DNA of 37,576 nucleotides. It comes from a virus. Position numbers and translations under genes: made by a program. The notes under the pieces are model-generated. The model saw only the letters and a program-made list of their open reading frames with translations. It made no database searches and had not been told where the DNA came from. Of this stretch, positions 3,676-25,005 are shown piece by piece. Each line of letters begins with the position of its first letter. The stretch's first letter is position 1. The stretch spans positions 1-37,576 of the IMG/VR virus record IMGVR_UViG_3300020165_000059; one strand, written 5' to 3'.

Positions 3676-3676
3676 C

Positions 3677-8931: not shown

Positions 8932-8944
8932 AGGTTTTCTTTAC

Positions 8945-10667: not shown

Positions 10668-10670
10668 GAT

Positions 10671-11740: not shown

Positions 11741-11762
11741 AAAAAGGGGGCGGTCAGCCCCC
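11739..11762 (-). terminator. Intrinsic terminator of the replication operon
   Basis: On the minus strand GGGGGC-TGACC-GCCCCC is followed by seven T, immediately after the SSB-like gene. It is a textbook rho-independent terminator. On the plus strand the same hairpin closes the pqqA-like gene (its TAA overlaps) but lacks a T run, so it may only protect that 3' end. A nearby CCCCC at 11766-11770 could pair alternatively with the same G run. Confidence 0.85.
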
Positions 11763-11773
11763 AATCCCCCTAG

Positions 11774-12693: not shown

Positions 12694-12696
12694 TGT

Positions 12697-13194
12697 TTAA
12701 ACATCCTTTTTAATTTTTTCTATAAATGGCATACATAACTTTCTGTCTGCCTCGTTTAAACCATTAAAGTATTGTCTAGCCGTAGCTACACCTTGCTCTT
12801 TATATATGTTCTCTATACGCTCTAGAACATCTGCTTCAGGCAAATCCTCACCATAATAAAGGTGAAGCGAAATTCCAAAAAGAGCAATGCCTTTTGCTAG
12901 ACACCTTTGCATAGCCGTATTTAATTGCATTGTATTAGGATTCTTAATGGCTTGATTCTTAAAATCTAATACAGGTAGTTGAGATGTCATCTCTTTACCA
13001 AATGCTCTGACTGTGCAGAACACCATCATACTGCCATCAGGTAATGTATATGGCTCTCTGTAGTCCCATGTTGCTGAATCATCATGTTGCAATAAAGTAT
13101 CTACTGCCCATGCCCATGATAGATAAGTAAACTTACCTTTCTTTTCTGTGTATTTACTAACATCTATCTTTCTTAACTCTGCGTATTTACTCAT
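12697..13194 (-). CDS. Single-strand annealing protein, DUF1071 (Sak3-type)
   Basis: 165 residues. IDVSKYTEKKGKFTYLSWAW near the N-terminus, an IKNPNTMQLNTAMQRCLAKG block and LYYGEDLP match the DUF1071 family of phage ERF/Rad52-like annealing proteins. It would pair complementary strands produced by the adjacent exonuclease. It starts in an ATGA overlap and its TAA is the one inside GTTTAAAC (12695-12702), so the motif links the annealing and exonuclease genes. Confidence 0.75.
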   Translation of the reverse strand: MSKYAELRKIDVSKYTEKKGKFTYLSWAWAVDTLLQHDDSATWDYREPYTLPDGSMMVFCTVRAFGKEMTSQLPVLDFKNQAIKNPNTMQLNTAMQRCLAKGIALFGISLHLYYGEDLPEADVLERIENIYKEQGVATARQYFNGLNEADRKLCMPFIEKIKKDV

Positions 13195-13349
13195 GACTTA
13201 CCCCCAAATATTTCATTTATAATTTGTTGTTTGTAGGCAAGTTGAGACATCTGTTCCATCTCTTGATAGTCTTTAGCCATTTCTTGTTGTAATTGGTCTT
13301 GTGATTCTACTTGCTGAACTGCAAGTGCTAATTCTGTTGATTTACTCAT
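13191..13349 (-). CDS. Small Gln-rich coiled-coil protein
   Basis: 52 residues, with AAGGAG before ATG 13349. It is nearly all helix-forming and Gln/Glu-rich (LALAVQQVESQDQLQQEMAK, then DYQEMEQMSQLAYKQQIINE). The stop overlaps the DUF1071 start, so it is likely co-translated with the annealing protein and may be an accessory. Unknown family. Confidence 0.5.
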   Translation of the reverse strand: MSKSTELALAVQQVESQDQLQQEMAKDYQEMEQMSQLAYKQQIINEIFGGKS

Positions 13350-13374
13350 GGTATTTCTCCTTTCTTGTTAAAAG

Positions 13375-13533
13375 TTAATATACTTTACTACTGTTAATTT
13401 TATTTGTCAAACTCTTATTTACTTTATCCCAATTTTTAGATTTATAAACTTTTCCATCTCTACTTGTTGCTTTATATTCAACATCTTTAAAACTTTGTTT
13501 AAACGCTTTAATAAACTCATTAGCAGTTAGCAT
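13375..13533 (-). CDS. Small basic hypothetical protein
   Basis: 52 residues from ATG 13533, overlapping the end of the helicase gene by seven bases with GGAGAG upstream. It is Lys-rich with the pattern SRDGKVYKSKNWDKVNKSL. The 3' half of the gene contains the candidate promoter for the downstream recombination genes. Function unknown. Confidence 0.45.
   Translation of the reverse strand: MLTANEFIKAFKQSFKDVEYKATSRDGKVYKSKNWDKVNKSLTNKINSSKVY
13382..13410 (-). promoter_or_regulatory. Internal sigma-70-like promoter for recombination genes
   Basis: On the minus strand TTGACA (13405-13410) is followed by a 17-base spacer and TAAAGT (13382-13387). It lies at the end of the 13375 gene and about 35 bases before the next start. 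That would give the recombination genes their own promoter besides the one at 15250-15278. Confidence 0.5.
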
Positions 13534-14441
13534 GGTCTCTCCGAAAATCTCTGTTTAAACTTGTTAAACCAAAAAGAAAATGTCCCCTCAAACGGATGAT
13601 TTCTTTGTTTCTGAACCATTAAGTATGAAGTGCAAGGGTTATCACCTTCCTCTAATTCCCCTAACATCTTTGCCTGTTCTATATCTTTTCTTCTATGCAA
13701 ACAGAGAATATTGTCTGTTAGGTTTCTAATGTGGCTACTCCCTAAAATATGTGAAGCGTCAGGTATCACTGTTTCATCTGCTAATTTTTTAGTATGAGCA
13801 ACCAAGAACACATGAATGTTAAGGTCTCTAGCAAGGCAACTAATTTTGTTGATAAACTTTTTCTGACTTGCATAATCATCTTCTGCAATGCTATCTACTT
13901 TCATCAAACTGTCTATAACAAAAACATCACAATCATGCACATTTTTTCCAAAGTGTAGACTTGCTACCAAATCATCTTCAGATGTTGTTCCTTGTGCATT
14001 AAATAACCACAACTTATTTTTGTATTTTTCACAAAACTCCTCAATATGTTGGTCATTCGCTTCTCTAATTCCTGTCTGTTGAATCATTTTTGCTATCTGT
14101 ATAACAGGTCTCATCTCCATACTTGCTACTAAAACATTTGTATAGGTCATTAAGTTAAGTAATACCTGTGATAAAAAGGTAGTTTTTCCTGACCCTGAAC
14201 TGCCTGTCAAAATTGTTACCTCTCCTCGCCTTACAAGAAAATTACTATCCTCATCAGTTTTTTGAAAGCCTAAAGAAAACCCAGAGTTTTTCTCATTACG
14301 ATAATAATTTTTTACATCATCTACTAAATTATCTGTCGTCTTTACTTTAAAATCTGTTTCTTCTTCATAGAAACCACCCTCTTGCAAAGTTTTTCTGTTG
14401 ATAGTCAACTGCTCTACAATGCTACCGACATCAGTTTTCAT
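13527..14441 (-). CDS. DnaB-like replicative helicase (RecA fold)
   Basis: 304 residues. Walker A GSSGSGKT (80-87), a Glu-containing VLVASMEM strand (104-111), Walker B VFVIDSLM (173-180), then VFLVAHTKK and a GSSHIRNLTDNILCLHRRK arginine-finger/L-loop region are those of the DnaB/gp4 helicase C-domain. The usual N-terminal primase-binding domain is absent or very short, so it resembles single-domain phage helicases. Adjacent to the initiator-like gene with a four-base overlap, suggesting O/P-like loading. Confidence 0.75.
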   Translation of the reverse strand: MKTDVGSIVEQLTINRKTLQEGGFYEEETDFKVKTTDNLVDDVKNYYRNEKNSGFSLGFQKTDEDSNFLVRRGEVTILTGSSGSGKTTFLSQVLLNLMTYTNVLVASMEMRPVIQIAKMIQQTGIREANDQHIEEFCEKYKNKLWLFNAQGTTSEDDLVASLHFGKNVHDCDVFVIDSLMKVDSIAEDDYASQKKFINKISCLARDLNIHVFLVAHTKKLADETVIPDASHILGSSHIRNLTDNILCLHRRKDIEQAKMLGELEEGDNPCTSYLMVQKQRNHPFEGTFSFWFNKFKQRFSERPC

Positions 14442-15031
14442 AAAGCACCTCTGATTTGTGTTGGTGATTTAGGATTATCATTCCACCTTTCTTGATTAAT
14501 GATAACTTCAGGGCTAGGATTAAAACCCTCTAACCACTCTCTCGTTTTTTTCATAGTAGCAGTCCAAGAAATAATTTTTTTTGAAATGTCATCAAGTTTT
14601 TTTGATTTCCATTTTTCTAAACAACCTTTCTTGTTTACTTTTCTTTTGTCAGGTAATGACTCCCACCATTTTTCAAAATGTTCAGCAGTGCCTTTTACAA
14701 CTTCAGATTTTAAAACTGATAACATTGATTCTTTTTTTAGGTCTTGCTCTGTTACTTCATAGAACCAATTTTTTGCGTTTAAACTGTCATATATTTTTTT
14801 TAACTTTTCCTCATCTTGTCTTAAACGAAAAGCACAAGATTTCATGTCAGGTAATATACCATTAAACTGCGAAGCCAAATCCCACGCTTCTCTTAAAAAC
14901 AATCTCTCTGTTTCTGACAACTCCATGTAAGTTACATCATTTAAAATATCGCCACCATACATTTTATACCAACTCATTTTATTTTTATGTTTGTAATGTT
15001 GGAACTTGTCCCAATTTTTTATTTTAAACAT
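14438..15031 (-). CDS. Replication initiator / replisome organiser-like protein
   Basis: 197 residues, with AAGGAAAAAT before the ATG. The N-terminal half (KNKMSWYKMYGGDILND, LSETERLFLREAWDLASQFN, LRQDEEKLKKIYDSL) has the winged-helix pattern of phage replisome organisers and O-like proteins. The C-terminal half contains FEKWWESLPDKRKVNKKGCL, similar to basic motifs of phage initiators. Directly upstream of the helicase gene. It would bind the phage origin and load the helicase (inference). Confidence 0.6.
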   Translation of the reverse strand: MFKIKNWDKFQHYKHKNKMSWYKMYGGDILNDVTYMELSETERLFLREAWDLASQFNGILPDMKSCAFRLRQDEEKLKKIYDSLNAKNWFYEVTEQDLKKESMLSVLKSEVVKGTAEHFEKWWESLPDKRKVNKKGCLEKWKSKKLDDISKKIISWTATMKKTREWLEGFNPSPEVIINQERWNDNPKSPTQIRGAL

Positions 15032-15049
15032 TATTTTTCCTTTTTATGT

Positions 15050-15217
15050 TTAAACAGTTTTTGTTAAATACTCCTGAATTTCGTATTGTCTTAATTTTGG
15101 AATCTGCTTATTGATAAACCATTTTGAAACTGCTTGTCTACTGATTTGTAATTTGTCTGCAATGTCAGATTGATTTCTAAAATTTTCTAGCAGATATTCA
15201 AATGTAATTTTTTCCAT
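15050..15217 (-). CDS. Cro/YdaS-like helix-turn-helix regulator
   Basis: 55 residues, first gene of the leftward operon, with AAGGAG nine bases before ATG. NQSDIADKLQISRQAVSKWF is a clean helix-turn-helix (residues 15-34), followed by a short dimerising tail. Size matches Cro and YdaS antitoxin-like repressors. The stop codon is the TAA of GTTTAAAC (15048-15055). Sitting between two divergent promoters that carry inverted repeats, it is the obvious candidate for binding them. Confidence 0.75.
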   Translation of the reverse strand: MEKITFEYLLENFRNQSDIADKLQISRQAVSKWFINKQIPKLRQYEIQEYLTKTV

Positions 15218-15249
15218 TTCTTAACTCCTTGTTAATTGATTGAGATGTC

Positions 15250-15278: not shown

Positions 15279-15310
15279 GTAAAGTCTGAAAAATAAACAT
15301 CATCATTACC

Positions 15311-15401
15311 CATATATATATTCTTTTCTAATCTTATCTTATCTGTTATATACATTGTCTAGAGGTTGTCTAGAGCCTCTCTAGAGTTTGTATGTTTAAA
15401 C
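15311..15401 (+). promoter_or_regulatory. Composite repeat element, copy A (TTATCTTATCTG + three TCTAGA)
   Basis: ATCTTATCTTATCTGTTATA starts at 15331, followed seven bases later by TCTAGA at 15358, 15369 and 15380, an exact 11-base period. GTTTAAAC follows at 15394-15401 and TATAAA at 15403. The same arrangement, with the same seven-base gap and period, recurs at 22247-22309. It is not coding. Phased repeats suggest a site for a multimeric protein: an activator-dependent promoter or replication iterons. Confidence 0.75.
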
Positions 15402-15439
15402 ATATAAATCAATAACTTAAAAATAATAAATAAAAAGGT

Positions 15440-15469
15440 TGACATTTATTTACATAGTATGTCATTATG
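15440..15469 (+). promoter_or_regulatory. Rightward early promoter with operator-like palindrome
   Basis: TTGACA at 15440-15445 and CATTAT at 15464-15469 (18-base spacer). The spacer holds ACATA-G-TATGT, a perfect 11-base inverted repeat (15453-15463). Drives the first rightward cassette, whose first gene begins 29 bases on. Confidence 0.55.
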
Positions 15470-15497
15470 TCTTTACATTAATAAAAGGAGAGCAAAA

Positions 15498-15677
15498 ATG
15501 AATTGTGACAAGGAGTATGAATACGAAGTGATTGGTTACTTACTAGCAAAAGTTGACCAAGAGACAGGTGAAGAAGTATTGAACAGGCATGGAGATGTAA
15601 AGTTGTTTAAACACCTAGACAATACGATTGATGTTCTAGGATTTTCAGAAGAATCAGTAGAGGAGATACCACAATGA
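15498..15677 (+). CDS. Small acidic hypothetical protein, first gene of cassette 1
   Basis: 59 residues from ATG 15498, which follows AAAAGGAGAGCAAAA. A TTG-type start at 15459 would overlap the promoter and is unlikely. The product is acidic with alternating strands (EYEYEVIGYLLAKVDQETGE; DNTIDVLGFSEESVEEIPQ). Overlaps the next start (ATGA). Contains GTTTAAAC at 15605-15612 as Leu-Phe-Lys-His. No known family. Confidence 0.6.
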   Translation: MNCDKEYEYEVIGYLLAKVDQETGEEVLNRHGDVKLFKHLDNTIDVLGFSEESVEEIPQ

Positions 15678-15970
15678 GTAAATTACCAATAGCAAAAATA
15701 GATAGAAGTCATTTTATTAATTGGCTTTATCACGATAACCATGAACTTGAAGATTTAGCGTGTGAAGTTATATGCTCTATAGACCAGAGTGGTTCTTATA
15801 GTTTAGATATAGATGACCTTTATGGTGGTCTAGGTGGATTCTATGCTAAAGACATGATTGAAAACTATGAAGAATTAAAGACATACATAGAATCTTGCGA
15901 GGGATATGATGATGGATGGTTGGATAATCCCTCTGCATTTATAGAAGTTAAATGGATAGAGGGGGAATAG
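15674..15970 (+). CDS. Acidic hypothetical protein
   Basis: 98 residues, strongly acidic with many Asp/Glu and Tyr residues (DQSGSYSLDIDDLYGGLGGF; NYEELKTYIESCEGYDDGWL). There is no basic patch and no enzyme motif. The charge resembles DNA-mimic anti-restriction proteins, but nothing specific supports that role. Coupled to the gene before it. Confidence 0.55.
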   Translation: MSKLPIAKIDRSHFINWLYHDNHELEDLACEVICSIDQSGSYSLDIDDLYGGLGGFYAKDMIENYEELKTYIESCEGYDDGWLDNPSAFIEVKWIEGE

Positions 15971-15972
15971 AT

Positions 15973-16140
15973 ATGAAAATAGATATAGATAGTTACATTG
16001 ATAGAGAAGAAGATGTAGAAACTTATGGTGAGCGAATATATTTAAGTGCTAGTCGTTTAATAGAAGATATTGTATTTAAGCTAAAGAACGACCCTGATAA
16101 TAAAGACATTATAATTGAAGTAGATATTTATAACGATTAA
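15973..16140 (+). CDS. Small acidic hypothetical protein
   Basis: 55 residues from ATG 15973, with GAGGGGG upstream. An alternative start at 15952 would overlap the previous gene. It has an acidic N-terminus (MKIDIDSYIDREEDVETYGE) and a beta C-terminus (KDIIIEVDIYND). Followed immediately by AGGAGT-GTTTAAAC-ATG of the next gene. Unknown function. Confidence 0.5.
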   Translation: MKIDIDSYIDREEDVETYGERIYLSASRLIEDIVFKLKNDPDNKDIIIEVDIYND

Positions 16141-16154
16141 AGGAGTGTTTAAAC

Positions 16155-16379
16155 ATGAAAATACAAGTCAATACAGAAGTTCGCTCTATTTATGAGTTAT
16201 CGGATAAAGAGTATGACCGAGTTACTAAAACAATGGAAAGTAAGGGTTACTCATGGAAAGATTTATCTGACTGTGAGATTGCTCAAGTTTATAAAAACAA
16301 TGGGAAATTGATACTAGAAGAAACTACATATCAAGAAAACCCTATTTCTAATAAGGAGAGTAAAAATGAATATAATTAA
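16155..16379 (+). CDS. Small hypothetical protein with GTTTAAAC start context
   Basis: 74 residues. The start context is AGGAGT, GTTTAAAC, ATG: the palindrome fills the spacer between ribosome-binding site and start. The protein opens with a beta strand (MKIQVNTEVRSIYELSD) and a helical section (EYDRVTKTMESKGYSWKDLS), ending disordered. Its 3' end overlaps the next gene by 14 bases in another frame. Confidence 0.55.
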   Translation: MKIQVNTEVRSIYELSDKEYDRVTKTMESKGYSWKDLSDCEIAQVYKNNGKLILEETTYQENPISNKESKNEYN

Positions 16380-16506
16380 TTATAAAGAAAAAGGTTGTCC
16401 ACAATGCAATACAGAATATCAATGTTTTGATTGTGAGTGTTTTGAAATGCAATGGCTAAAAGGTTACACCTTGCAAGATAATTTAACATGGGAAAAGGAG
16501 AATTAA
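16366..16506 (+). CDS. Small Cys-rich (zinc-binding?) protein
   Basis: 46 residues after AAGGAGAGTAAAA. Cysteines are arranged as GCPQCNTEYQCFDCECFEMQ (residues 10-29). Four or five of them could bind zinc in a compact knuckle. Followed two bases after its stop by the next ATG. Unknown family. Confidence 0.5.
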   Translation: MNIINYKEKGCPQCNTEYQCFDCECFEMQWLKGYTLQDNLTWEKEN

Positions 16507-16507
16507 G

Positions 16508-16645
16508 ATGAAAATAATAGCGTGGAAAATAGTTGGATATGATGAAGATAACAACGAGGTTGAAATAGATATACATAAAAGCCATGTAGCAAATGTTGTT
16601 GATGATTATATAACTGAAGAATATGAGGAGTATGAAGATGAGTAA
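16508..16645 (+). CDS. Small acidic hypothetical protein
   Basis: 45 residues, one base after the previous stop, with AAAAGGAGAATTAAG upstream. Begins MKIIAWKIVGYDEDNNEVEI and ends in a run of Glu, Tyr and Asp (ITEEYEEYEDE). The acidic end overlaps the start of the next gene by eight bases. Unknown function. Confidence 0.5.
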   Translation: MKIIAWKIVGYDEDNNEVEIDIHKSHVANVVDDYITEEYEEYEDE

Positions 16646-16814
16646 TTATGACTACGATATAGATATAAACATACCAACAACAGTTAGATTAGATAATGGC
16701 AATGTTTTAGATTTAAAGTTAGATGGCAGAGTTATCAGTGATTTAACATTAGATAGAATTTTTCAAGACATTGATGATTTTTTAGAAAATGAATTTCAAG
16801 GGGGGATTCAGTGA
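16638..16814 (+). CDS. Small acidic hypothetical protein
   Basis: 58 residues from ATG 16638, with GAGGAG at 16625. A start at 16623 would remove that site. The sequence is acidic with a beta pattern (TVRLDNGNVLDLKLDGRVIS) and a final helix (RIFQDIDDFLENEF). Its stop overlaps the following ATG (TGATG). Confidence 0.5.
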   Translation: MSNYDYDIDINIPTTVRLDNGNVLDLKLDGRVISDLTLDRIFQDIDDFLENEFQGGIQ

Positions 16815-17035
16815 TGATTAATTTTTTAATGGAAGATAAAGAAGTAGAAATTTTTTTGAGATTTAAGGCATGGAAAATGAACCTGATTGATAAGTGGGAA
16901 GTTTATCCATTTTGTTATGAGTATATAAAAAATAATTTAATATCAAAATCATTTGTTGTTGACACTGCAAAAGAAGTATGCGATATTAAATCTGAAGTCG
17001 TTGACATGAGATTAGACGACATATCTAAAATGTAA
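16814..17035 (+). CDS. Small hypothetical protein
   Basis: 73 residues from ATG 16814, with AAGGGGGGATTCAG upstream. It has helical segments (EVEIFLRFKAWKMNLIDKWE) and an acidic end (CDIKSEVVDMRLDDISKM). Followed by AAAAGGAGT-GTTTAAAC-ATG of the next gene. Not recognised. Confidence 0.5.
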   Translation: MINFLMEDKEVEIFLRFKAWKMNLIDKWEVYPFCYEYIKNNLISKSFVVDTAKEVCDIKSEVVDMRLDDISKM

Positions 17036-17051
17036 AAAGGAGTGTTTAAAC

Positions 17052-17177
17052 ATGGAAAGACGAGACGAAGATTGGATTAACCCTGATGAACCAAAGATGG
17101 GTTACAACGGATATTTTTTTGAATTAGATGATGATGATGAAATAGAAGTGGAAGTGGAGTTAGAAGATGATGAATAA
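17052..17177 (+). CDS. 41-residue very acidic protein with GTTTAAAC start context
   Basis: Start at 17052 directly after AAGGAGT and GTTTAAAC (17044-17051). A short basic N-terminus (MERRDEDW) leads to an extreme acidic tail (residues 25-41 almost all Asp/Glu). It overlaps the next gene by eight bases. A DNA-mimic or partner-binding role is conceivable, but not shown. Confidence 0.5.
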   Translation: MERRDEDWINPDEPKMGYNGYFFELDDDDEIEVEVELEDDE

Positions 17178-17346
17178 TAATGATGAAATTTTAGAAAGTT
17201 TATATGATGAAGCTTATCAGGAAATTTTAGATGATGAACATGAGAATAAAGAGAATCCTGATTATAAGGTCTTATCTTGTGAACAGAAATATGAGAAAGC
17301 CTATCAGATAACCATGATGAAATTCTTAAAAACGGGAATGGTATAG
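17170..17346 (+). CDS. Small acidic hypothetical protein, last gene of cassette 1
   Basis: 58 residues from ATG 17170. The adjacent ATG at 17167 would add one Met. It is helical and acidic (ILESLYDEAYQEILDDEHEN) with a more basic C-terminus (YEKAYQITMMKFLKTG). A terminator follows about 30 bases downstream. Unknown function. Confidence 0.5.
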   Translation: MNNNDEILESLYDEAYQEILDDEHENKENPDYKVLSCEQKYEKAYQITMMKFLKTGMV

Positions 17347-17369
17347 TGTCAACTACCTTATTTAAATCG

Positions 17370-17410
17370 CACCACGAGGCTTATATGAAGCCGTTTTTTA
17401 GCGTTTAAAC
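17370..17410 (+). terminator. Intrinsic terminator of cassette 1; repeated gene-end element, copy B
   Basis: GGCTT (17378-17382) pairs with AAGCC (17388-17392) across five bases, followed by G and six T. The whole element, CACCACGAG ... GAAGCC ... TAGCGTTTAAACA, matches the minus-strand copy at 8891-8931. It ends in GTTTAAAC (17403-17410). Confidence 0.7.
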
Positions 17411-17455
17411 AGAATATTACTAACATGAAGCTTTATAATTAATTGTAATTAATAG

Positions 17456-17484
17456 TTGACATTATTATTCAGCTATGTAACAAT
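17456..17484 (+). promoter_or_regulatory. Promoter of cassette 2 with leader hairpin
   Basis: TTGACA at 17456-17461 and AACAAT at 17479-17484 (17-base spacer; TAACAA at 16 is an alternative). The leader then holds GTGC-TAATT-GCAC, a small hairpin, and AAAAGGAAA before the first gene. The same promoter-hairpin-AAAGGAAA layout recurs at 18964 and 20315. Confidence 0.5.
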
Positions 17485-17525
17485 GTCTACATGGTGCTAA
17501 TTCGCACTTAACAAAAGGAAATAGC

Positions 17526-17684
17526 ATGGACTTGTTTAAACAAGCAATTACAAACAAAGTATGTTTTGGTAGGGAAGAAGAAGAAGTAAAAGCAATTAAA
17601 AGATTATCAAGAAAAGAAGTAAAAGATAATCCACACAATTTAGATTTGCAGATATTAATGCAATATGCAATTAACAATAATTAA
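17526..17684 (+). CDS. Small basic hypothetical protein
   Basis: 52 residues after AAAAGGAAATAGC. Starts MDLFKQAITNKVCFGREEEE and continues with a mixed charged helix (VKAIKRLSRKEVKDNP). GTTTAAAC at 17534-17541 encodes Leu-Phe-Lys-Gln. It is less acidic than its neighbours. Not recognised. Confidence 0.5.
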   Translation: MDLFKQAITNKVCFGREEEEVKAIKRLSRKEVKDNPHNLDLQILMQYAINNN

Positions 17685-17701
17685 TAAAAGGAAAATATAT
17701 T

Positions 17702-18088
17702 ATGAAAGCGACAAGAAAAGAATTATGCACAGATGTAATACAAAAATTGTTCTTTGCAAGTGAGTATCAAGATATTAATGATGATGATTCTATTAGAATT
17801 GTGATTGAAGGCACTCAAGATTACAATGGCTCTATGTATAAACATGAAAGTGTGCAAGGCATATTAAAGTTTAATCAAATTAAGGTAGATTGGTGGCAAT
17901 GGGAAATGGTTGTAGATTGGAAATACATTGTAGATTCACATGTTGATGATGGCTCTTTGATTATTAATTTATCTCAAGAAGTATTAAAAGATGGATTGAT
18001 AAATATTAATGACATGGCAAATGTAGGGCTTCGTCATAATTTCTTTAAATCACAATCTGCATATGACATTGCATTTGGCAACATTTAA
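17702..18088 (+). CDS. Acidic hypothetical protein
   Basis: 128 residues after AAAAGGAAAATATATT. N-terminal helix (TRKELCTDVIQKLFFASEYQ), then strand-rich, Trp-containing stretch (LKFNQIKVDWWQWEMVVDWK) and an acidic, Ile-rich C-terminus. The fold could be a compact beta sheet. There is no catalytic motif. Largest protein of cassette 2. Confidence 0.55.
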   Translation: MKATRKELCTDVIQKLFFASEYQDINDDDSIRIVIEGTQDYNGSMYKHESVQGILKFNQIKVDWWQWEMVVDWKYIVDSHVDDGSLIINLSQEVLKDGLININDMANVGLRHNFFKSQSAYDIAFGNI

Positions 18089-18100
18089 AAGGAGATGAAA

Positions 18101-18271
18101 ATGGACATTAAAAAAGATTTAAGAAAAAAACACAGATTATATTTAGAGTATTTAAATTTTTTAAATTGGGATTCAATTAATTATAACGCTTTTGAGGATA
18201 CTGATGATGATTTTTTTGAATGGGTTATGAGTTATGAAATTGATAGCGATTGGAAAAAGGAGACTGTTTAA
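18101..18271 (+). CDS. Small hypothetical protein ending in GTTTAAAC
   Basis: 56 residues after AAAAGGAGATGAAA. A basic, Leu/Tyr-rich helix (KKDLRKKHRLYLEYLNFLNW) is followed by an acidic aromatic region (DTDDDFFEWVMSYEIDSDW). The stop is the TAA inside GTTTAAAC (18266-18273), and the next ATG follows two bases later, so the motif is the whole gene junction. Confidence 0.5.
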   Translation: MDIKKDLRKKHRLYLEYLNFLNWDSINYNAFEDTDDDFFEWVMSYEIDSDWKKETV

Positions 18272-18273
18272 AC

Positions 18274-18624
18274 ATGAAAACATATACACTTAAAGAAGTT
18301 CTAGCATTGTATGAAGATAACAACGAGTCAGGCTATTACTACGGCTACAAGGGAATAGTTTTAAATGCCATAGAAAAAGGGTATTCTATCTCTGTAAACA
18401 ATGGCGAAGAATGGTCAACAGATAAGTCTACGGACTACATGGAAGTCATTAAGGATATTGAAACTGTTGATGATTGCGACCTGAATTTTTTTGACAAGTC
18501 AGACAAGTATGTCGGTTGGGCTAAAATTATTTTATACAATGATTACAACGAGTCGGTCAGTGATTATACGGCTAATGATGAGATGGAGTCATTGATAAAC
18601 ATAGGGGGGAAAGTGCCATGTTAA
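18274..18624 (+). CDS. Acidic Tyr-rich hypothetical protein
   Basis: 116 residues from ATG 18274, after AAAGGAGACT and GTTTAAAC. A longer frame to 18250 overlaps the upstream gene and lacks a site. N-terminal helix (TLKEVLALYEDNNESGYYYG), then acidic beta/loop sequence with many Asp, Tyr and Ser. The acidic surface suggests a protein- or DNA-mimic, unproven. Overlaps the next gene by seven bases. Confidence 0.55.
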   Translation: MKTYTLKEVLALYEDNNESGYYYGYKGIVLNAIEKGYSISVNNGEEWSTDKSTDYMEVIKDIETVDDCDLNFFDKSDKYVGWAKIILYNDYNESVSDYTANDEMESLINIGGKVPC

Positions 18625-18731
18625 ACAGATGGGATAGTTTTTTAACGGAAAAAAGGAAGAAAAGAAACTGTAGTATTTTATTTTTTTTAGTGGGAGTTTT
18701 TTCCACGATTATTTGTTATGAATTTTTTTAA
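18618..18731 (+). CDS. 37-residue single-pass membrane peptide
   Basis: ATG 18618 overlaps the previous stop, with GGGGGGAAAG upstream. Basic N-terminus (MLNRWDSFLTEKRKKRNC) and one hydrophobic helix (SILFFLVGVFSTIICYEFF). It would insert with the N-terminus in the cytoplasm. Possibly a superinfection-exclusion or membrane-signalling peptide. No evidence beyond topology. Confidence 0.45.
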   Translation: MLNRWDSFLTEKRKKRNCSILFFLVGVFSTIICYEFF

Positions 18732-18840
18732 TAGTTTTTTAGTTTTTTATTTTTTAGTTTCAATTTTTTCTTTTATTAGTTTTATTTTTTAAAAAATTAT
18801 TTTTTCCTTTAATTCCTTTTTGGATTAAATAGTTTTTTAG
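18732..18840. other. T-rich non-coding stretch before terminator
   Basis: About 110 bases composed mostly of T runs broken by AG (TTTTTTAG repeated several times from 18731). No coding frame with a start and ribosome-binding site was found on either strand. It may act as a pause or transcript-destabilising tract ahead of the terminator. Confidence 0.4.
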
Positions 18841-18869
18841 TAGGGAGTTTAAACACTCCCTATTTTTTT
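18841..18869 (+). terminator. Intrinsic terminator of cassette 2 with GTTTAAAC in the loop
   Basis: TAGGGAGT (18841-18848), loop TTAAAC, ACTCCCTA (18855-18862) and a run of seven T. The eight-pair stem is perfect. The palindrome GTTTAAAC (18847-18854) spans stem top and loop, so a protein bound to it as DNA, or a structure change in RNA, could affect termination. Confidence 0.85.
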
Positions 18870-18906
18870 ATTTAAAATCAACTTACTTTATCAAATACAT
18901 AATATT

Positions 18907-18981
18907 GTTTAAACGCTCTTTTAGTGATAAGTAAAATCAATCAATAAATACTATCAATTATTATTGACATGATGTTAAAAT
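18907..18981 (+). promoter_or_regulatory. Control region of cassette 3
   Basis: Contains GTTTAAACGCT (18907-18917), then TTGACA at 18964-18969 and TAAAAT at 18976-18981. The two boxes are only six bases apart, against 16 in the otherwise similar promoter at 20315. TTGACAT and TTAAAAT...AACTTTAAAAAGGAAA are shared by both. The missing ten bases include the GTTTAAAC. The true -35 here is unclear. The leader carries ACGC-GTGTAT-GCGT. Confidence 0.35.
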
Positions 18982-19031
18982 ACCCTTACGCGTGTATGCG
19001 TGTTTATTAACTTTAAAAAGGAAATTTAAAA

Positions 19032-19340
19032 ATGAATAACAAAAAATACGGCATGGATTATTTAACTAGCGACTTACCAAAGGACGAAGTAAACGAGGAC
19101 GAGTCATTATATACAGAGGGCGATTGCATTTTATACCAATTTTATTGCGGTAATTTTAGCGATACAGTCAAAAGGTGCTTTTATAACGGAGTGTATTGGA
19201 ACGACTTGGAAAATTACATTTCAAACAAAGCCCATGAATACGGCATGGATAGAAACGAGGGTGATTTTTTCTCATGGTTTGATGGTTCTTTTTTCGGTGA
19301 GTTTGGCTCTAAATTAGAGCGTATTAGAGGGGGTGTTTAA
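19032..19340 (+). CDS. Acidic aromatic hypothetical protein
   Basis: 102 residues after AAAAAGGAAATTTAAAA. Acidic start (SDLPKDEVNEDESLYTEGD), then a compact Cys/Tyr/Phe/Trp-rich domain (LYQFYCGNFSDTVKRCFYNG; GDFFSWFDGSFFGEF). The composition fits a small globular inhibitor. No relatives recognised. Its stop is the TAA of GTTTAAAC (19335-19342), directly before the next ATG. Confidence 0.55.
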   Translation: MNNKKYGMDYLTSDLPKDEVNEDESLYTEGDCILYQFYCGNFSDTVKRCFYNGVYWNDLENYISNKAHEYGMDRNEGDFFSWFDGSFFGEFGSKLERIRGGV

Positions 19341-19342
19341 AC

Positions 19343-19564
19343 ATGGCATTATTAAAAGCGACTAGTCAAGCCCTAGTATTGCAATATAAAGGCTATTTAA
19401 AAAATCTATCTAGCAATTATAAAAAAGCCATGCAAGACGCTCAAAATTATGATTATGATGTAGGAGATGTTTTTCATTATCGTTTTGAAGCTCTTATGGA
19501 TTCTATTCAATATGATATTGATGAAATTTATAAAGATTTTAACAATTACAAGAGAGGTGTTTAA
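19343..19564 (+). CDS. Small helical hypothetical protein
   Basis: 73 residues. Start context is GAGGGGGT-GTTTAAAC-ATG. Mostly helical (YLKNLSSNYKKAMQDAQNYD; FEALMDSIQYDIDEIYKDFN). It again ends in Gly-Val and GTTTAAAC (19559-19566), so both ends of this gene are bounded by the palindrome. Unknown function. Confidence 0.5.
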   Translation: MALLKATSQALVLQYKGYLKNLSSNYKKAMQDAQNYDYDVGDVFHYRFEALMDSIQYDIDEIYKDFNNYKRGV

Positions 19565-19566
19565 AC

Positions 19567-19746
19567 ATGACAAAAAGACAACGATTTAAAGATATGACAG
19601 AAGAAGAAAAAGAAATTTATAATTTTTTGTTAAGTGCTAACGAAAAAGATTATCCAAACATAAAAGATATGATTGATGATTTTTGGCAATCATATTTTTA
19701 TATGAGAAAATCACCGCTTGATGAATTTGGTTATTTAGGAAATTAA
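19567..19746 (+). CDS. Small acidic hypothetical protein
   Basis: 59 residues. Start two bases after the preceding stop, with AGAGAGGT upstream of GTTTAAAC. N-terminus basic (MTKRQRFKDM), rest acidic and helical (TEEEKEIYNFLLSANEKDYP; DMIDDFWQSYFYMRKS). Followed by AAAAGGAGT-GTTTAAAC-ATG. Not recognised. Confidence 0.5.
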   Translation: MTKRQRFKDMTEEEKEIYNFLLSANEKDYPNIKDMIDDFWQSYFYMRKSPLDEFGYLGN

Positions 19747-19761
19747 AAGGAGTGTTTAAAC

Positions 19762-19872
19762 ATGAATTATAAAAAACACAATCAGCATGTAATTGACTAT
19801 CTAAACAACAACGGATGGAACTTAAAAGCTTATGAAATTTATGAAAGGATAGAGCAAAAATTATTAAATTAA
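19762..19872 (+). CDS. 36-residue hypothetical peptide, last gene of cassette 3
   Basis: Starts directly after AGGAGT and GTTTAAAC (19754-19761). One helical peptide (HVIDYLNNNGWNLKAYEIYE), ending shortly before the terminator. The strong initiation context supports translation. Function unknown. Confidence 0.45.
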   Translation: MNYKKHNQHVIDYLNNNGWNLKAYEIYERIEQKLLN

Positions 19873-19893
19873 TTTTTTAGTTTTATTTTTTTG

Positions 19894-19922
19894 AAGCCCT
19901 GATTTTTTTAGGGCTTTTTTTT
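19894..19922 (+). terminator. Intrinsic terminator of cassette 3
   Basis: AAGCCCT (19894-19900) pairs with AGGGCTT (19910-19916) over a nine-base T-rich loop, followed by a T run. Seven perfect pairs. Located 20 bases after the last gene of the cassette. Confidence 0.85.
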
Positions 19923-20314
19923 ATTTTATTTTTTTGTTTAAACGCTTCTTATTTTTTTATTTTATTTTTCTGTTTAAACAGTGTTATTTTTTTGTGCCTA
20001 TTTTTTAAGCAATTTTATTTTTCTGTGAATAAGTTGTGGATTAAATCAATAAAAGTTATCCACAAGCAATATTGTATAAAAATTAAGCAGATGTTAAGCA
20101 AAATAGAGTAATGCTCTCAATCCCTCTCATATCAAGGGATTCAAGAGGGCTTTCAGAATGGCTCTCTGTGGGCTTTTTAGGGTTGACATAATACCATTAC
20201 ATCAAAGACAGCTTAAATTGTCATATGGGCTTAAAAAGGCTCTTTATGTTGATTTACTGATATTGATTAAAATCATGTAAAAAAGGGGTGATAAGTAATA
20301 TAAATCAATAATAA
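19923..20314. other. Non-coding region with DnaA boxes and alternative hairpins (origin candidate)
   Basis: No convincing gene in 390 bases. It contains GTTTAAAC at 19936 and 19972, two facing DnaA-like boxes (20035-20043, 20056-20064) and TTAAGCAGATGTT (20093), which is repeated at 21683. Two mutually exclusive helices follow: AATCCCT/AGGGATT (20119-20141) and CCCTCT/AGAGGG (20122-20149). Several GGGCTT repeats and a lone TTGACA (20183) complete it. AT-rich flanks fit an origin or a regulatory leader. Confidence 0.45.
20035..20064. promoter_or_regulatory. Pair of DnaA boxes
   Basis: TTATCCACA, the exact bacterial DnaA box consensus, at 20056-20064, faced by TAATCCACA on the opposite strand (20035-20043), 12 bases apart. 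Further boxes occur at 21387-21406, 21710-21718 and 21786-21794. Confidence 0.55.
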
Positions 20315-20342
20315 TTGACATGTTTAAACATTGCTATAAAAT
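20315..20342 (+). promoter_or_regulatory. Promoter of cassette 4 with GTTTAAAC in the spacer
   Basis: TTGACA (20315-20320), 16-base spacer, TAAAAT (20337-20342). GTTTAAAC (20322-20329) lies within the spacer, an ideal position for a repressor or spacer-binding activator. The leader has GAAAC/GTTTC as a small hairpin and AAAAAGGAAA before the first gene. Confidence 0.65.
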
Positions 20343-20397
20343 ACATTTCAGAAACAGCAAAATCGCGGTTTCATAACTTTAAAAAGGAAAGCAAAAA

Positions 20398-20694
20398 ATG
20401 AAAACATTAAGAAACGGATATAAATTAGTTCTAAATCATCAAGGCATTGAGAACGGCGTAGTTCTAGCAATGCGGATTGATGACAGCAAAAAAGAGTTCG
20501 TAACATGGATTGCTAATGGTAATAATTTAGACAATCTTTGTCATGGCAATTACTTCTTATTAGAACGCGGTGAAAAAGAATATATTGCATTAGATAACGC
20601 TTATCAAGAAGCCGTATCAGATTATTTAGCTAGAATTAAATTTTCACCTGATACCGACTTTATGAATATTGAAACTTTAAAAGGGGAAAAATAA
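20398..20694 (+). CDS. Hypothetical protein upstream of SprT-like gene
   Basis: 98 residues after AAAAAGGAAAGCAAAAA. Beta-rich start (GYKLVLNHQGIENGVVLAMR; SKKEFVTWIANGNNLDNLCH) and helical end (LDNAYQEAVSDYLARIKFSP). There is no known motif. Its stop overlaps the next ATG (TAATG), so it is coupled to the metallopeptidase gene. Confidence 0.55.
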   Translation: MKTLRNGYKLVLNHQGIENGVVLAMRIDDSKKEFVTWIANGNNLDNLCHGNYFLLERGEKEYIALDNAYQEAVSDYLARIKFSPDTDFMNIETLKGEK

Positions 20695-21307
20695 TGGAAA
20701 ATATAAACAGAGAAACTTGGTTAAATTTAATGATTGATAAGGCAGTTCCGCTTTTTGATAATGCTGGATTAAAATTTCAGATATCAGAGAAAAATTAAAA
20801 GTCTCATGTTCTTTTATTCAAGGTTCAAGGGGTAATAAATTAAAAGATGCAATTGGCGTTCATTACAATCCAACCATATCAGCAGAGGGTTTTCATGAAA
20901 TGATGATACAGCCTAGCTTATCAGATAGCGTTCAAGTAGTAGGCGTTCTTATTCATGAAATGGTGCATAGTATTCAGACTCATTTGCACCATGATAAGAA
21001 TGGCTTTTTATCTGTGAAGCCACATGGAAAAGAGTTTCGTAAAATGGCTTTGGCAGTGGGCTTAACTGGAAAAATGACAGCCACAACAGAAAGCCCTGAA
21101 TTAAAAATTCAGATTGAAAAATGGATTGCTGAAATTGGCAAATATCCACACGCTAAAATGACATTAAATGATAGCAGAGGGAAGCAAACAACTAGAATGA
21201 TAAAACTTGAATGTGAACATTGTGGTTTTATTTGCAGAGCTTCAAATGGTGCTATAAATAACTTCGGGCTTCCTACTCACTGCGGTGAGGATATGGAAAT
21301 CGCATAG
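20694..21307 (+). CDS. SprT-like zinc metallopeptidase, interrupted by a -1 frameshift
   Basis: The first frame (20694-20798) gives INRETWLNLMIDKAVPLFDN and AGLKF, the normal N-terminus of SprT-like phage/plasmid proteins, then stops. The continuation is one frame back (open from about 20747 to the TAG at 21307): DIREKLKVSC, then LIHEMVHSIQTH (HExxH zinc site), KPHGKEF, GLTGKMTA and a C-terminal zinc ribbon (CEHCGF...THCGEDM). So two frames make one known protein. Either a one-base indel broke it, or ribosomes shift near GGATTAAAATTTC or GAGAAAAATTAA. ATG 20900 could make a short form keeping HEMVH. Confidence 0.7.
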
Positions 21308-21329
21308 TTTAAACAGCCCCAAATAAATC

Positions 21330-21354
21330 AGCCCCTTTTTACAGGGGCTTTTTT
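21330..21354 (+). terminator. Intrinsic terminator of cassette 4
   Basis: AGCCCCT (21330-21336), loop TTTTAC, AGGGGCT (21343-21349) and six T. A second AGCCCC at 21315-21320, next to GTTTAAAC, could compete for the 3' arm. Follows the SprT-like gene. Confidence 0.85.
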
Positions 21355-21737
21355 ATGTCTGAAATTAACTGCTTAAAAATTAATCATGTGGATAGATTGT
21401 GGATAACTTAAAATGATGATATAATCCTATCAATTAAGCGTTAAACCTCTTTAATATCAATCTAATTAGACAATCTTAAACCCTTATAAATCAAGGCTTT
21501 TAAAGGCTTTGATATATTTAGCGGTGATATAAGCAGATAAAGGTATTAAAAAAGGCTTATAAAAGTATCTAGAAGCTCTCTCACAAGCTTTTATTTAATC
21601 AGGTAAGGGGTAACCTTGCCTTATGTTATTCAAACGCTTACAAGAGCTTAAAACAAGCCGTTTAAACATTGTGCTTAATATTTAAGCAGATGTTCACAAC
21701 TGCGAATAGTTATCCACAACCAATCAAACATAACAAT
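21355..21737. other. Non-coding region upstream of terminase (late promoter, DnaA boxes)
   Basis: No gene supported in 380 bases. It holds two minus-orientation DnaA boxes (21387-21395 with one mismatch, 21398-21406 exact) and one plus box (21710-21718). It also holds three AAGGCTT repeats, an isolated TCTAGA (21568), the hairpin GGTAAGG/CCTTGCC (one G-T pair; about 21602-21620), GTTTAAAC (21660) and a second TTAAGCAGATGTT (21683). Confidence 0.45.
21397..21425 (+). promoter_or_regulatory. Candidate promoter for packaging/structural genes
   Basis: TTGTGG (21397-21402), 17-base spacer and a perfect TATAAT (21420-21425). An exact DnaA box (21398-21406, minus orientation) overlaps the -35, so DnaA or a replication protein could repress it. 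Terminase small subunit starts about 310 bases downstream. Confidence 0.45.
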
Positions 21738-23739: not shown

Positions 23740-25005
23740 ATGGCAAAACAAATAACAACAGGCTATAAGCCAAGAGCCCCACAAAAAGAAATACATGAAA
23801 TGGTTAAAGGTAATCGTTTTAGTGTTGTGGTTGCTCATAGACGAATGGGTAAAACAGTTTGTGCTATTAACCAACTGATACATAGTGCACTCAACTGTGA
23901 TAAACCTAATCCTAGATTTGCTTATGTAGCACCGACCTACAATCAAGCTAAAAGAATTGCATGGGACTACCTGCTAGAATATACAAGACCATTAGAAGCT
24001 AAAGCCAACATTGCTGAACTGCGTGTAGACTTTATGGGCAGAAGGATAAACTTGTATGGGGCAGATAACCCTGACAGTCTGCGTGGAATCTACCTAGATG
24101 GGTGCGTTCTTGATGAGATTGGGAACATTAATCCTACACTATTCACAGAGATTGTCAGACCTGCACTAGCAGACCGACTCGGCTACTGCGTAGCAATGGG
24201 TACACCGAAAGGACAGAATCACTTTAAAGACTTGAGAGATAGAGGGTCAAGAAGTGAGGGTTGGGAATTATTAGAATTTAAATCTTCTGAAACAGGTATT
24301 GTTGATAAGAATGAGTTACTCGCTGCTAAAGCAGAGATGGGTGATGATAAGTATGCTCAAGAATTTGAGTGTAGTTTTAACGCTCCAGTAGAAGGTGCTT
24401 ACTATTCCTCTATCATTAATGATATAGAAGAACAAAATCATATTATAGACATTCCTAAAGACGAACTAGCAAGGACATATACTGGCTGGGATTTAGGTAT
24501 GTCAGACTCTACTAGCATATGGGTAGCACAGGTAGTTAATAAAGAAATAAGACTCATAGATTTTGTAGAAAATCATGGTGTAGGTCTTGATTACTATGTA
24601 AATTGGCTGCGAGAACATGACTATATGTACGCAACACACATACTACCTCATGATGTCGCTGTAAGAGAATTAGGCACAGGCAAATCAAGAAAAGAGATGT
24701 TAGAAGAAGCAGGTTTAAACATTACAGTTGCAACCAAGCTATCAGTAATGGATGGCATTGCCGCAGCAAGAAAAATATTACCACGCTGCTGGTTTGATAA
24801 AGATAAAACAAAACAAGGATTAGATGCAATACGGAACTATCGTAGAGTATTTGATGAAAAAAGAAATGTATTTCATGATAGACCTTTCCATGATTGGGCA
24901 TCACACGCATCTGATGCGTTTAGATACCTAGCAGTTGGTATGGATGAGTCCCCTATGGAAGCATGGACAAAACCACTAGAGATAAACACTTCATGGATAG
25001 TATAA
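23740..25005 (+). CDS. terL: Terminase large subunit
   Basis: 421 residues. ATPase: Walker A AHRRMGKT (32-39), Walker B CVLDEIG (122-128), motif III GTPKG (154-158). Nuclease: first acidic site in TGWDLGMSDSTS (Asp251) and the late ASHASDAFRYLAVG. It pumps DNA through the portal and cuts it. Length is standard. Initiation site GAGAGTTACAATAAG is modest. The portal gene follows immediately. Confidence 0.92.
   Translation: MAKQITTGYKPRAPQKEIHEMVKGNRFSVVVAHRRMGKTVCAINQLIHSALNCDKPNPRFAYVAPTYNQAKRIAWDYLLEYTRPLEAKANIAELRVDFMGRRINLYGADNPDSLRGIYLDGCVLDEIGNINPTLFTEIVRPALADRLGYCVAMGTPKGQNHFKDLRDRGSRSEGWELLEFKSSETGIVDKNELLAAKAEMGDDKYAQEFECSFNAPVEGAYYSSIINDIEEQNHIIDIPKDELARTYTGWDLGMSDSTSIWVAQVVNKEIRLIDFVENHGVGLDYYVNWLREHDYMYATHILPHDVAVRELGTGKSRKEMLEEAGLNITVATKLSVMDGIAAARKILPRCWFDKDKTKQGLDAIRNYRRVFDEKRNVFHDRPFHDWASHASDAFRYLAVGMDESPMEAWTKPLEINTSWIV

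What the first reader, a model, noticed from the sequence alone, without database searches (positions are those of the whole stretch)
15440..21354. Four consecutive promoter-to-terminator cassettes of tiny acidic genes
Cassettes at 15440-17399, 17456-18869, 18964-19922 and 20315-21354 each start with TTGACAT, have a short leader and an AAAAGGA(A/G) site, and end with an intrinsic terminator. They carry about 20 genes of 36-128 residues, most of them acidic and without relatives I recognise. Separate termination of each block in a phage early region is unusual and suggests independently acquired, individually tuned modules. The acidic products are candidates for anti-defence (DNA mimic) or host-takeover proteins.
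Basis: partly seen in the sequence, partly recalled or inferred. Interest (0 to 1): 0.6.

Follow-up and report, generated by a model that had tools for sequence, protein, structure and literature searches.

The report
Phage-wide DNA tag with matching protease-like protein
The four gene cassettes are real, but the bigger find is that this virus of bacteria, and many unrelated ones, carries dozens of copies of one exact 8-letter DNA word, and viruses rich in that word tend to encode the same family of DNA-repair-protease-like proteins, whose zinc finger probably reads it.

Summary
The four cassettes are real. Five TTGACAT boxes lie in 1,410 noncoding bases (0.11 expected), four terminators follow, and 15 of 20 small products have pI below 5. 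Promoters P1-P3 recur in OM43 phage Venkman. Anti-defence function has no support here.

It sits between ribosome site and ATG, in every gap between cassettes, in one terminator loop and in the promoter of cassette 4. Cassette 4 encodes a SPRTN-like metalloprotease with a C-terminal zinc ribbon (PHROG 6361, function unknown).

Protein and palindrome go together in both directions. Of 38 non-redundant loci picked by the protein alone, GTTTAAAC ranks first of 256 palindromes in 27 (220 copies, 10.3 expected). Of 29 long records picked by DNA alone, all 12 with at least 19 copies encode the protein, against 1 of 17 with 10 or fewer. Some of the densest phages have lost the protease motif or keep only the ribbon.

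Best reading: the ribbon binds GTTTAAAC, placing the protein along the element's own DNA and on its own promoter. Binding and purpose are inferred. My paper searches found no description.

The parts
15439..17399 (+). Cassette 1: promoter TTGACAT 15439, ten small ORFs 15498-17346 (pI 4.05-4.93), terminator 17378-17392
17456..18869 (+). Cassette 2: promoter 17456, five ORFs 17526-18731, terminator 18839-18864 with GTTTAAAC in its loop
18964..19922 (+). Cassette 3: promoter 18964, four ORFs 19032-19872, terminator 19893-19917
20315..21354 (+). Cassette 4: promoter TTGACAT 20315 with GTTTAAAC between -35 and -10, ORF 20398-20694, SprT-like gene, terminator 21330-21349
20694..21307 (+). SprT/SPRTN-like metalloprotease gene with C-terminal zinc ribbon (PHROG 6361); interrupted here by a one-base gap (20694-20798 in one frame, 20762-21304 in another); intact in L029 and Venkman
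   Evidence: model
15394..15401 (.). GTTTAAAC upstream of promoter 1
15605..15612 (.). GTTTAAAC inside ORF 15498-15677
16147..16154 (.). GTTTAAAC between ribosome-binding site and ATG (16155)
17044..17051 (.). GTTTAAAC between ribosome-binding site and ATG (17052)
17403..17410 (.). GTTTAAAC in the 63-base gap between terminator 1 and promoter 2
17534..17541 (.). GTTTAAAC inside first ORF of cassette 2
18266..18273 (.). GTTTAAAC between ribosome-binding site and ATG (18274)
18847..18854 (.). GTTTAAAC in the loop of terminator 2
18907..18914 (.). GTTTAAAC in the gap between terminator 2 and promoter 3
19335..19342 (.). GTTTAAAC between ribosome-binding site and ATG (19343)
19559..19566 (.). GTTTAAAC between ribosome-binding site and ATG (19567)
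19754..19761 (.). GTTTAAAC between ribosome-binding site and ATG (19762)
19936..19943 (.). GTTTAAAC in the gap between terminator 3 and promoter 4
19972..19979 (.). GTTTAAAC in the gap between terminator 3 and promoter 4
20322..20329 (.). GTTTAAAC in the spacer of promoter 4, which would transcribe the SprT-like gene: candidate autoregulatory site
21307..21314 (.). GTTTAAAC overlapping the stop codon of the SprT-like gene
21660..21667 (.). GTTTAAAC upstream of the ORF at 21669/21690
7340..15055 (.). Eleven further GTTTAAAC sites at 7340, 8891, 10506, 11037, 11611, 12695, 12754, 13497, 13553, 14777, 15048
1766..6823 (.). Three sites in structural genes: 1766, 4117, 6816
24713..26745 (.). Two sites in terminase and portal genes: 24713, 26738

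Best explanation
GTTTAAAC is the dispersed recognition site of the phage's own SPRTN-like protein. SHOWN: the exact 8-bp palindrome is strongly over-represented, and its density tracks the presence of the PHROG 6361 SprT-like gene across largely unrelated phages, some plasmids and a few bacterial contigs. INFERRED: (1) the C-terminal zinc ribbon, usually carrying a KQ(T/S/G)TR loop, binds the palindrome, one ribbon per half-site; (2) this places the protein at many points on the element's own genome and on its own promoter, giving autoregulation; (3) where the metalloprotease is intact it clears proteins from, or acts on proteins near, the element's own DNA during replication and expression, a sequence-addressed version of SPRTN. 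In OM43 phages sites also fall in cassette boundaries and between ribosome site and ATG, so bound protein would additionally influence early expression. I put about 0.85 on the protein-site link being functional, about 0.7 on direct reading by the ribbon, and about 0.35-0.4 on step 3 rather than pure gene regulation.
For: (a) 33 sites in the window (1.2 expected), 34 in Venkman (1.67 expected). (b) Chosen by protein: one search kept the best 80 of 382 loci; these fall into 38 clusters at 80% protein identity; GTTTAAAC ranks 1 of 256 palindromes in 27 of 38, pooled 220 vs 10.3 (z 65; next palindrome z 3.5), GC 0.30-0.70. (c) Chosen by DNA: 29 records of 20 kb or more; 12 of 12 with 19-54 sites have PHROG 6361, 1 of 17 with 2-10 sites (the cut lies in a natural gap but was set afterwards; Fisher P 2.5e-7; densities do not overlap, 0.24-1.27 vs 0.02-0.18 per kb). 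(d): 14 of 27 loci with >=5 sites vs 0 of 50 with <=3. (e) Named phages: Dinoroseobacter R5C 17 vs 0.04, Pseudanabaena Pan1 16 vs 0.02, Burkholderia Mica 7 vs 0.10; top palindrome in 8 of 8 non-actinobacterial phages examined with an intact ribbon. (f) Ribbon rather than protease: L144, L147, L161, L181, L215, L249 lack HExxH, and L146, L210, L244 keep essentially only the ribbon, with 24, 39 and 23 sites. (g) Exactness: 455 sites vs 15.2 expected; no one-mismatch variant above 1.7x; outer flank C/T in 82%. (h) 22 sites vs 5.6 expected within 200 bp upstream of the SprT start over 45 records; all six of ep3, Bas97, Arya, MQ-4, Persinger and Mica have one 23-28 bp before the ATG. (i) AlphaFold2 model pLDDT 94; best structural match human SPRTN 6mdw, Z 8.8, rmsd 3.3, 107 aligned; ribbon 168-204 on desulforedoxin, Z 4.2. 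(j) Neighbours: ssb in Bas97, Arya, MQ-4 and Persinger, parA and repA on Sphingobium plasmids.
Against: No binding or cleavage was measured. 9 of 38 protein-selected clusters have no site, all at GC 0.55 or more, several with a normal-looking ribbon; Arthrobacter, Microbacterium and Streptomyces phages with KQ.TR ribbons have 0 sites in 3 of 5 examined, 1-2 in the others; one of four plasmids has none. G012 has 16 sites although its ribbon lacks KQ.TR. In some searches, 13 of 22 records with >=5 sites showed no PHROG 6361; most are fragments, one (G008) breaks off where related contigs carry the gene, but G006 (37 sites, 30 kb) and G009 (17 sites, 23 kb) stay unexplained. Loss of the protease motif in dense phages argues that proteolysis is not the selected function there. 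Foldseek itself gave no match below E 0.001. Z 8.8 is only just above what this aligner gives for common arrangements (note).
Confidence: 0.5

Rival explanations
1. The ribbon protein is a plain transcription regulator and GTTTAAAC its operator: dispersed operators and elongation roadblocks, in the manner of the stoperators of mycobacteriophage L5 (recalled), repressing early cassettes and its own gene. The protease part is vestigial or only structural.
For: Site in the spacer of promoter 4 and in each gap before promoters 1-4; enrichment upstream of the SprT gene, 22 vs 5.6; noncoding sites 181 vs 40.7 expected of 615 over 19 records, 21 of 34 in Venkman vs 9% expected; protease motif lost in several dense phages.
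Against: 434 of 615 sites are inside called ORFs, including structural genes; spacing is more even than random in R5C, Pan1, G006 and G009; operators usually tolerate mismatches, this site does not.
Confidence: 0.35
2. GTTTAAAC is the operator of the 55-aa P22-Cro-like repressor at 15050-15217 (-).
For: The gene is divergent from cassette 1; loci carrying near-identical Cro proteins all have many sites.
Against: Eight loci (L122-L128, L131) with 59-65% identical Cro and the same recognition helix have 0 sites; the Cro family is not among the most shared proteins of dense loci. The divergent region has its own 11-bp-spaced TCTAGA repeats that are better operator candidates.
Confidence: 0.04
3. 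GTTTAAAC is a restriction or methylation target (it is the PmeI word, recalled) and its abundance reflects a modification system.
For: Exact palindrome without degeneracy; Venkman is annotated with a DNA methyltransferase.
Against: No methyltransferase was recognised among the most shared families of the dense loci; the SprT-like family was first, in 14 of 28 loci plus the window. Restriction sites are usually avoided in phages, not accumulated (established knowledge).
Confidence: 0.06
4. Sites are boundary sequences for exchange of genes between phages (linker recombination), and the protein link is secondary.
For: Ends of aligned blocks between window and Venkman lie nearer to sites than random shifts (median 64 vs 171 bp, P 0.017; within 25 bp 4 of 16, P 0.066).
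Against: Intergenic position confounds the test; most sites in other phages are inside genes; it does not explain the link to one protein family.
Confidence: 0.05
5. One reading: the cassettes are anti-defence or host-takeover modules of acidic DNA mimics. This concerns the small genes and does not exclude the tag reading.
For: 15 of 20 products have pI < 5, net charge down to -16.5; early position and turnover of genes between relatives.
Against: No informative family hit; acidity alone is weak evidence; no structure was predicted for them here.
Confidence: 0.2

Closest known systems
SPRTN / SprT metalloproteases (Pfam PF10263; human SPRTN)
   Same: Zincin core with HExxH followed by a zinc-binding subdomain; best structural match 6mdw, Z 8.8. 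SPRTN's zinc-binding subdomain takes part in DNA binding (PMC9240642, passages read).
   Different: SPRTN recognises DNA structure (junctions, frayed ends; same passages), not a sequence. Here an exact 8-bp word tracks the protein, and the protease core can be lost.
Mycobacteriophage L5 stoperators with repressor gp71 (recalled)
   Same: Many copies of one short site spread over a phage genome, many in short intergenic gaps, tied to one phage protein.
   Different: L5 sites are asymmetric 13-mers aligned with transcription and bound by a helix-turn-helix repressor; here an exact palindrome, mostly inside genes outside the OM43 group, tied to a zinc-ribbon/zincin protein in many phage groups and plasmids.
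Chi, KOPS and DNA-uptake sequences (recalled)
   Same: Exact short words over-represented through whole genomes, in genes and between them, read by one protein machine.
   Different: Those are bacterial and mostly polar; this is palindromic, carried by phages and plasmids, and linked to a SPRTN-like protein.
P2 Ogr/Delta zinc-finger activators
   Same: Small phage zinc-finger DNA-binding proteins; one of 22 family members gives a weak Ogr_Delta hit (E 0.0012).
   Different: Only 1 of 22; no fixed promoter position of the sites overall.
Venkman EXVC282S (MT375522) and PHROG 6361
   Same: Nearest isolate, 90.6% identical DNA over 52% of the 7.2-kb query, same cassettes, 34 sites, annotated SprT-like protease; PHROG 6361 matches 22 of 22 family members.
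   Different: Neither the PHROG entry (unknown function) nor the passages of the Venkman papers that I read mention the palindrome.

Membership tests
SprT/SPRTN metalloprotease family | Profile match to PF10263 above the gathering score | tested here: met
   Window protein 30.5 bits, cut-off 25.6; 12 of 22 family members match at E <= 0.01
SprT/SPRTN metalloprotease family | HExxH zinc motif plus further histidine | tested here: met
   Window and L029 carry HEMVH; H88, E89, H92 and H111 nearly invariant in 36 aligned proteins. Not met in L144, L147, L161, L181, L215, L249
SprT/SPRTN metalloprotease family | SPRTN-like fold of the core | tested here: met
   Z 8.8, rmsd 3.3, 107 residues to 6mdw, top of 550 chains re-aligned; Foldseek alone found nothing at E < 0.001
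SprT/SPRTN metalloprotease family | C-terminal zinc-binding subdomain | tested here: met
   Two ribbon cysteines invariant in 22 members; residues 168-204 on desulforedoxin, Z 4.2
SprT/SPRTN metalloprotease family | DNA-dependent proteolysis, crosslink repair | not testable with these tools
   needs biochemistry
L5-type stoperator system | Many copies of a short site over the phage genome tied to one phage protein | tested here: met
L5-type stoperator system | Sites asymmetric and oriented with transcription | tested here: not met
   Perfect palindrome
L5-type stoperator system | Sites mostly in short intergenic regions | tested here: inconclusive
   21 of 34 in Venkman, but 181 of 615 over 19 records
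L5-type stoperator system | Bound protein silences transcription, gives immunity | not testable with these tools
   needs transcript and binding data
Restriction-modification target | Cognate methyltransferase or endonuclease shared by carriers | tested here: inconclusive
   None recognised among the most shared proteins of the dense loci; not searched family by family
Anti-defence DNA mimics | Strongly acidic small protein | tested here: met
   15 of 20 with pI < 5
Anti-defence DNA mimics | DNA-like charge surface; inhibits a defence enzyme | not tested
   No structures of these proteins predicted; no profile hit that helps

The most novel reading that the evidence does not exclude
Phages and some plasmids mark their own DNA with an exact 8-bp tag, GTTTAAAC, read by the zinc ribbon of a SPRTN-like metalloprotease. 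The protein is thereby addressed to the element's own genome, where it removes host or crosslinked proteins: a sequence-guided relative of DNA-protein-crosslink repair, with its own autoregulatory site and derived ribbon-only versions.
Probability: 0.35. Interest if true: 0.9.

Novelty: categorically new. Interest (0 to 1): 0.78.

Why it matters
A protein family that is common in phages, is annotated only as 'SprT-like protease' or 'transcription elongation protein', and has no assigned function (PHROG 6361), gets a specific DNA partner that can be tested at the bench. SPRTN-type proteases are known to recognise DNA structure, so a sequence-reading branch would be new biology. The exact tag would also be a marker for phages and plasmids that carry the protein. 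Relatives exist in laboratory E. coli phages (ep3, Bas97), so the test is cheap. I rate it categorically new because I know of no system that pairs an exact genome-wide tag with a SPRTN-like protein; if it proves to be a repressor with dispersed operators, 'new variant of a known kind' would be the fair label.

Tried and rejected
Cro-like repressor as reader of GTTTAAAC: rejected as main reading, because eight loci with the same recognition helix have no site. Search for another enriched palindrome in those loci gave only GTATATAC-type repeats near the promoter. Host-derived motif: the host genome was not examined; the spread over GC 0.29-0.66 elements makes it unlikely. Boundary-recombination reading: weak, confounded. 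Even spacing as a general rule: true in R5C, Pan1, G006, G009, not in OM43 phages, G014 or G015. Ribbon-less SprT as negative control: Bordetella CN2 and Pseudomonas Epa43 have 0 sites, but I did not compute how many chance would give there. PDB sequence search with A1: nothing useful. Rfam over 14800-22000: no match. Second structure job on the 86-aa L210 frame: pLDDT 72 overall, about 90 in the ribbon; not searched further. Paper searches for a description: 'GTTTAAAC'+'phage' (14 papers, none relevant by title), 'SprT-like'+'phage'+'zinc', 'SprT'/'bacteriophage'/'zinc ribbon', 'overrepresented palindrom'/'phage genomes'/'intergenic', 'SPRTN'/'bacteriophage'/'SprT family', 'TTTAAAC'+'palindrom'+'phage' (60 papers, 15 listed; two opened by passages, a primer and a CRISPR repeat).

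Papers: PMC8163748, PMC9004378, PMC7824862, PMC9240642, PMC6293099, PMC4916379 seen as passages only; all others as search listings only. L5 stoperators, PmeI, Chi, KOPS and uptake sequences are recalled.

Correction: a notebook entry says 16 of 20 small proteins have pI < 5; recounted it is 15.

Dropped rows: one locus with 4 sites (L187, carrying a SprT fragment) fell between the classes; searches used the 78 new listed loci L133-L210 of the 120 stretches; one search used 111 new loci; searches used 29 records, chosen for a contig length of 20 kb or more from the listed rows; the 41 records were picked by hand. One search used 45 records, the 29 protein-selected clusters that have a site plus 16 others, so clusters without sites were left out.

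Full report
WHAT THE WINDOW IS. A 37.6-kb virus record from IMG/VR whose nearest isolate is Methylophilales (OM43) phage Venkman. The finding covers the early region.

THE CASSETTES. The four promoter-to-terminator units are there. TTGACAT is not enriched in the whole window, but 5 copies stand in 1,410 noncoding bases where 0.11 are expected. P1, P2, P3 and a fifth box at 20183 recur in Venkman; P4 does not. The products are mostly acidic (15 of 20 with pI < 5) and mostly without family (18 of 20).

THE PALINDROME. GTTTAAAC occurs 33 times against 1.2 expected, with no shuffle of 100 above 5. 28 of the 33 lie between 7.3 and 21.7 kb. Six stand exactly between a ribosome-binding site and an ATG, at least one in each gap between cassettes, one in the terminator-2 loop, one in the promoter-4 spacer and one over the SprT stop codon. 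Venkman has 34, 21 of them not fully inside genes where 9% would be expected.

WHO READS IT. The neighbouring Cro-like repressor was the first suspect, but relatives with the same recognition helix lack the palindrome. A scan for AGGA-N1-4-GTTTAAACATG over IMG/VR then brought up unrelated phages with up to 39 copies in 9.3 kb, the dense ones (at least 5 sites) at GC from 0.32 to 0.59. The most widely shared protein family among 28 dense loci was the window's own SprT-like protein (14 of 28, plus the window): 14 of 27 loci with at least 5 sites carry it, 0 of 50 with at most 3.

TWO-WAY TEST. (1) Loci chosen only by protein similarity (best 80 of 382) reduce to 38 clusters. GTTTAAAC is the most significant of 256 palindromes in 27, absent in 9, present but lower-ranked in 2; pooled 220 copies against 10.3 expected, z 65, the runner-up 3.5. 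(2) Records chosen only by DNA (two sites 35-65 bp apart) and at least 20 kb long: 13 of 29 have PHROG 6361; all 12 with 19 or more sites have it, and 1 of 17 with 2-10 sites (Fisher P 2.5e-7, densities not overlapping; the cut was set after seeing the gap between 10 and 19). At locus level the same scan gives 29 of 56 dense and 5 of 55 sparse loci. (3) An earlier hand-picked set of 41 records is less clean: 9 of 22 with at least 5 sites and 1 of 19 with fewer have the family; many are fragments, G008 ends where the gene is expected, and G006 and G009 remain unexplained. (4) Relatedness: among 16 carriers, 92 of 120 pairs share no protein besides SprT at E < 1e-10, so common descent of whole genomes does not explain the link.

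NAMED CARRIERS. R5C 17 sites against 0.04 expected and Pan1 16 against 0.02, both at GC above 0.61; Mica 7 against 0.10; Persinger 4 against 0.10; Arya 7 against 0.98; Bas97 6 against 0.66; MQ-4 6 against 0.69; ep3 4 against 0.90; it is the top palindrome in all eight. Actinobacterial phages are different: Tweety19, DrManhattan and Honk 0, Araceli 1, Caron 2, though even 1-2 exceed the expected <0.01. Of the 18 named phages counted, six have none: CN2, Bernstein, Tweety19, DrManhattan, Epa43 and Honk; the first two and Epa43 have no KQ.TR ribbon. Plasmids: 2, 5 and 3 sites in three Sphingobium plasmids, 0 in a P. viciae plasmid, backwards control 0 in all. In GTDB contigs the word is top in two Streptomyces loci at GC 0.64-0.66, 5 and 4 sites against 0.01; five Planctomycetota loci had 0, 0, 0, 3 and 1, and the other two loci 2 and 3.

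WHICH PART OF THE PROTEIN. Across 22 members only Q and R of the KQ.TR stretch and two ribbon cysteines are invariant. Several of the densest phages lack HExxH, and L146, L210 and L244 encode little more than the ribbon, with 24, 39 and 23 sites. That points to the ribbon. G012, with 16 sites and a ribbon without KQ.TR, is a counter-example to that exact motif. The AlphaFold2 model is confident (pLDDT 94) and its core is best matched by human SPRTN (Z 8.8); the ribbon aligns with desulforedoxin (Z 4.2).

HOW IT MIGHT WORK. The word is exact: 455 copies against 15.2 expected, no single-change variant above 1.7-fold, outer base a pyrimidine in 82% of flanks. About 70% of 615 sites in 19 records lie inside called ORFs, yet noncoding sites are 4.4 times over-represented. 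Sites are concentrated within 200 bp upstream of the SprT gene (22 against 5.6 over 45 records, chosen among carriers with sites; at -23 to -28 in all six of ep3, Bas97, Arya, MQ-4, Persinger and Mica). The gene sits by ssb or by parA and repA. I read this as a self-tag that brings a SPRTN-like protein to the element's own DNA, with autoregulation; a pure repressor with dispersed operators is the main rival. The choice between them is inference.

NOVELTY. In the open-access library my seven searches found no report of the palindrome or its link to this protein; subscription papers and preprints outside PMC were not searchable.

Noticed in passing
window 15358-15385: Three TCTAGA repeats at 11-bp spacing between the Cro-like gene and promoter 1, conserved in Venkman; relatives have TTGTATAGAC or GTATATAC repeats at the same place. 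Candidate operators of the Cro-like repressor.
   Followed up: partly
window 19868-20285 and 21386-21794: Noncoding stretch 92.8% identical to Venkman while the next block is 74.5%; four exact DnaA-box words TTATCCACA at 20056, 21398, 21710, 21786 (0.44 expected in the window). Possible replication origin around the SprT cassette.
   Followed up: partly
window 20183-20300: Fifth conserved TTGACAT box followed by no convincing ORF and a terminator-like stem at 20227-20242; possible small RNA. No Rfam match.
   Followed up: no
window 20694-21307: SprT-like gene split by a one-base gap in this contig; intact copies exist. Could be an assembly error.
   Followed up: yes
L151 491, 1167, 2732: In this GC-rich phage several GTTTAAAC copies stand about seven bases upstream of TTGACA, as if part of a promoter.
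   Followed up: no
Caron (L371-L373), DrManhattan (L362-L364): CTTGCGCAAG 4 and 3 copies against 0.02 expected in two actinobacterial carriers of the SprT-like protein that have few or no GTTTAAAC: possibly a different tag.
   Followed up: no
L425, L426: TACTAGTA 4 and 2 copies against 0.02 expected next to enriched GTTTAAAC in Streptomyces contigs with the SprT-like gene.
   Followed up: no
L420 (Dinoroseobacter phage R5C): Carrier phage also encodes QueC, QueD, QueE, GTP cyclohydrolase and a queuine transferase, suggesting modified guanine in its DNA.
   Followed up: no
L431-L433 (Sphingobium plasmids): SprT-like gene beside parA-type and ribbon-helix-helix genes and toxin-antitoxin genes, repA close by in two; one GTTTAAAC lies inside the SprT gene in all three.
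   Followed up: partly
window early region versus Venkman: Ends of conserved blocks lie nearer to GTTTAAAC than random shifts (P 0.017); may only reflect gene boundaries.
   Followed up: partly
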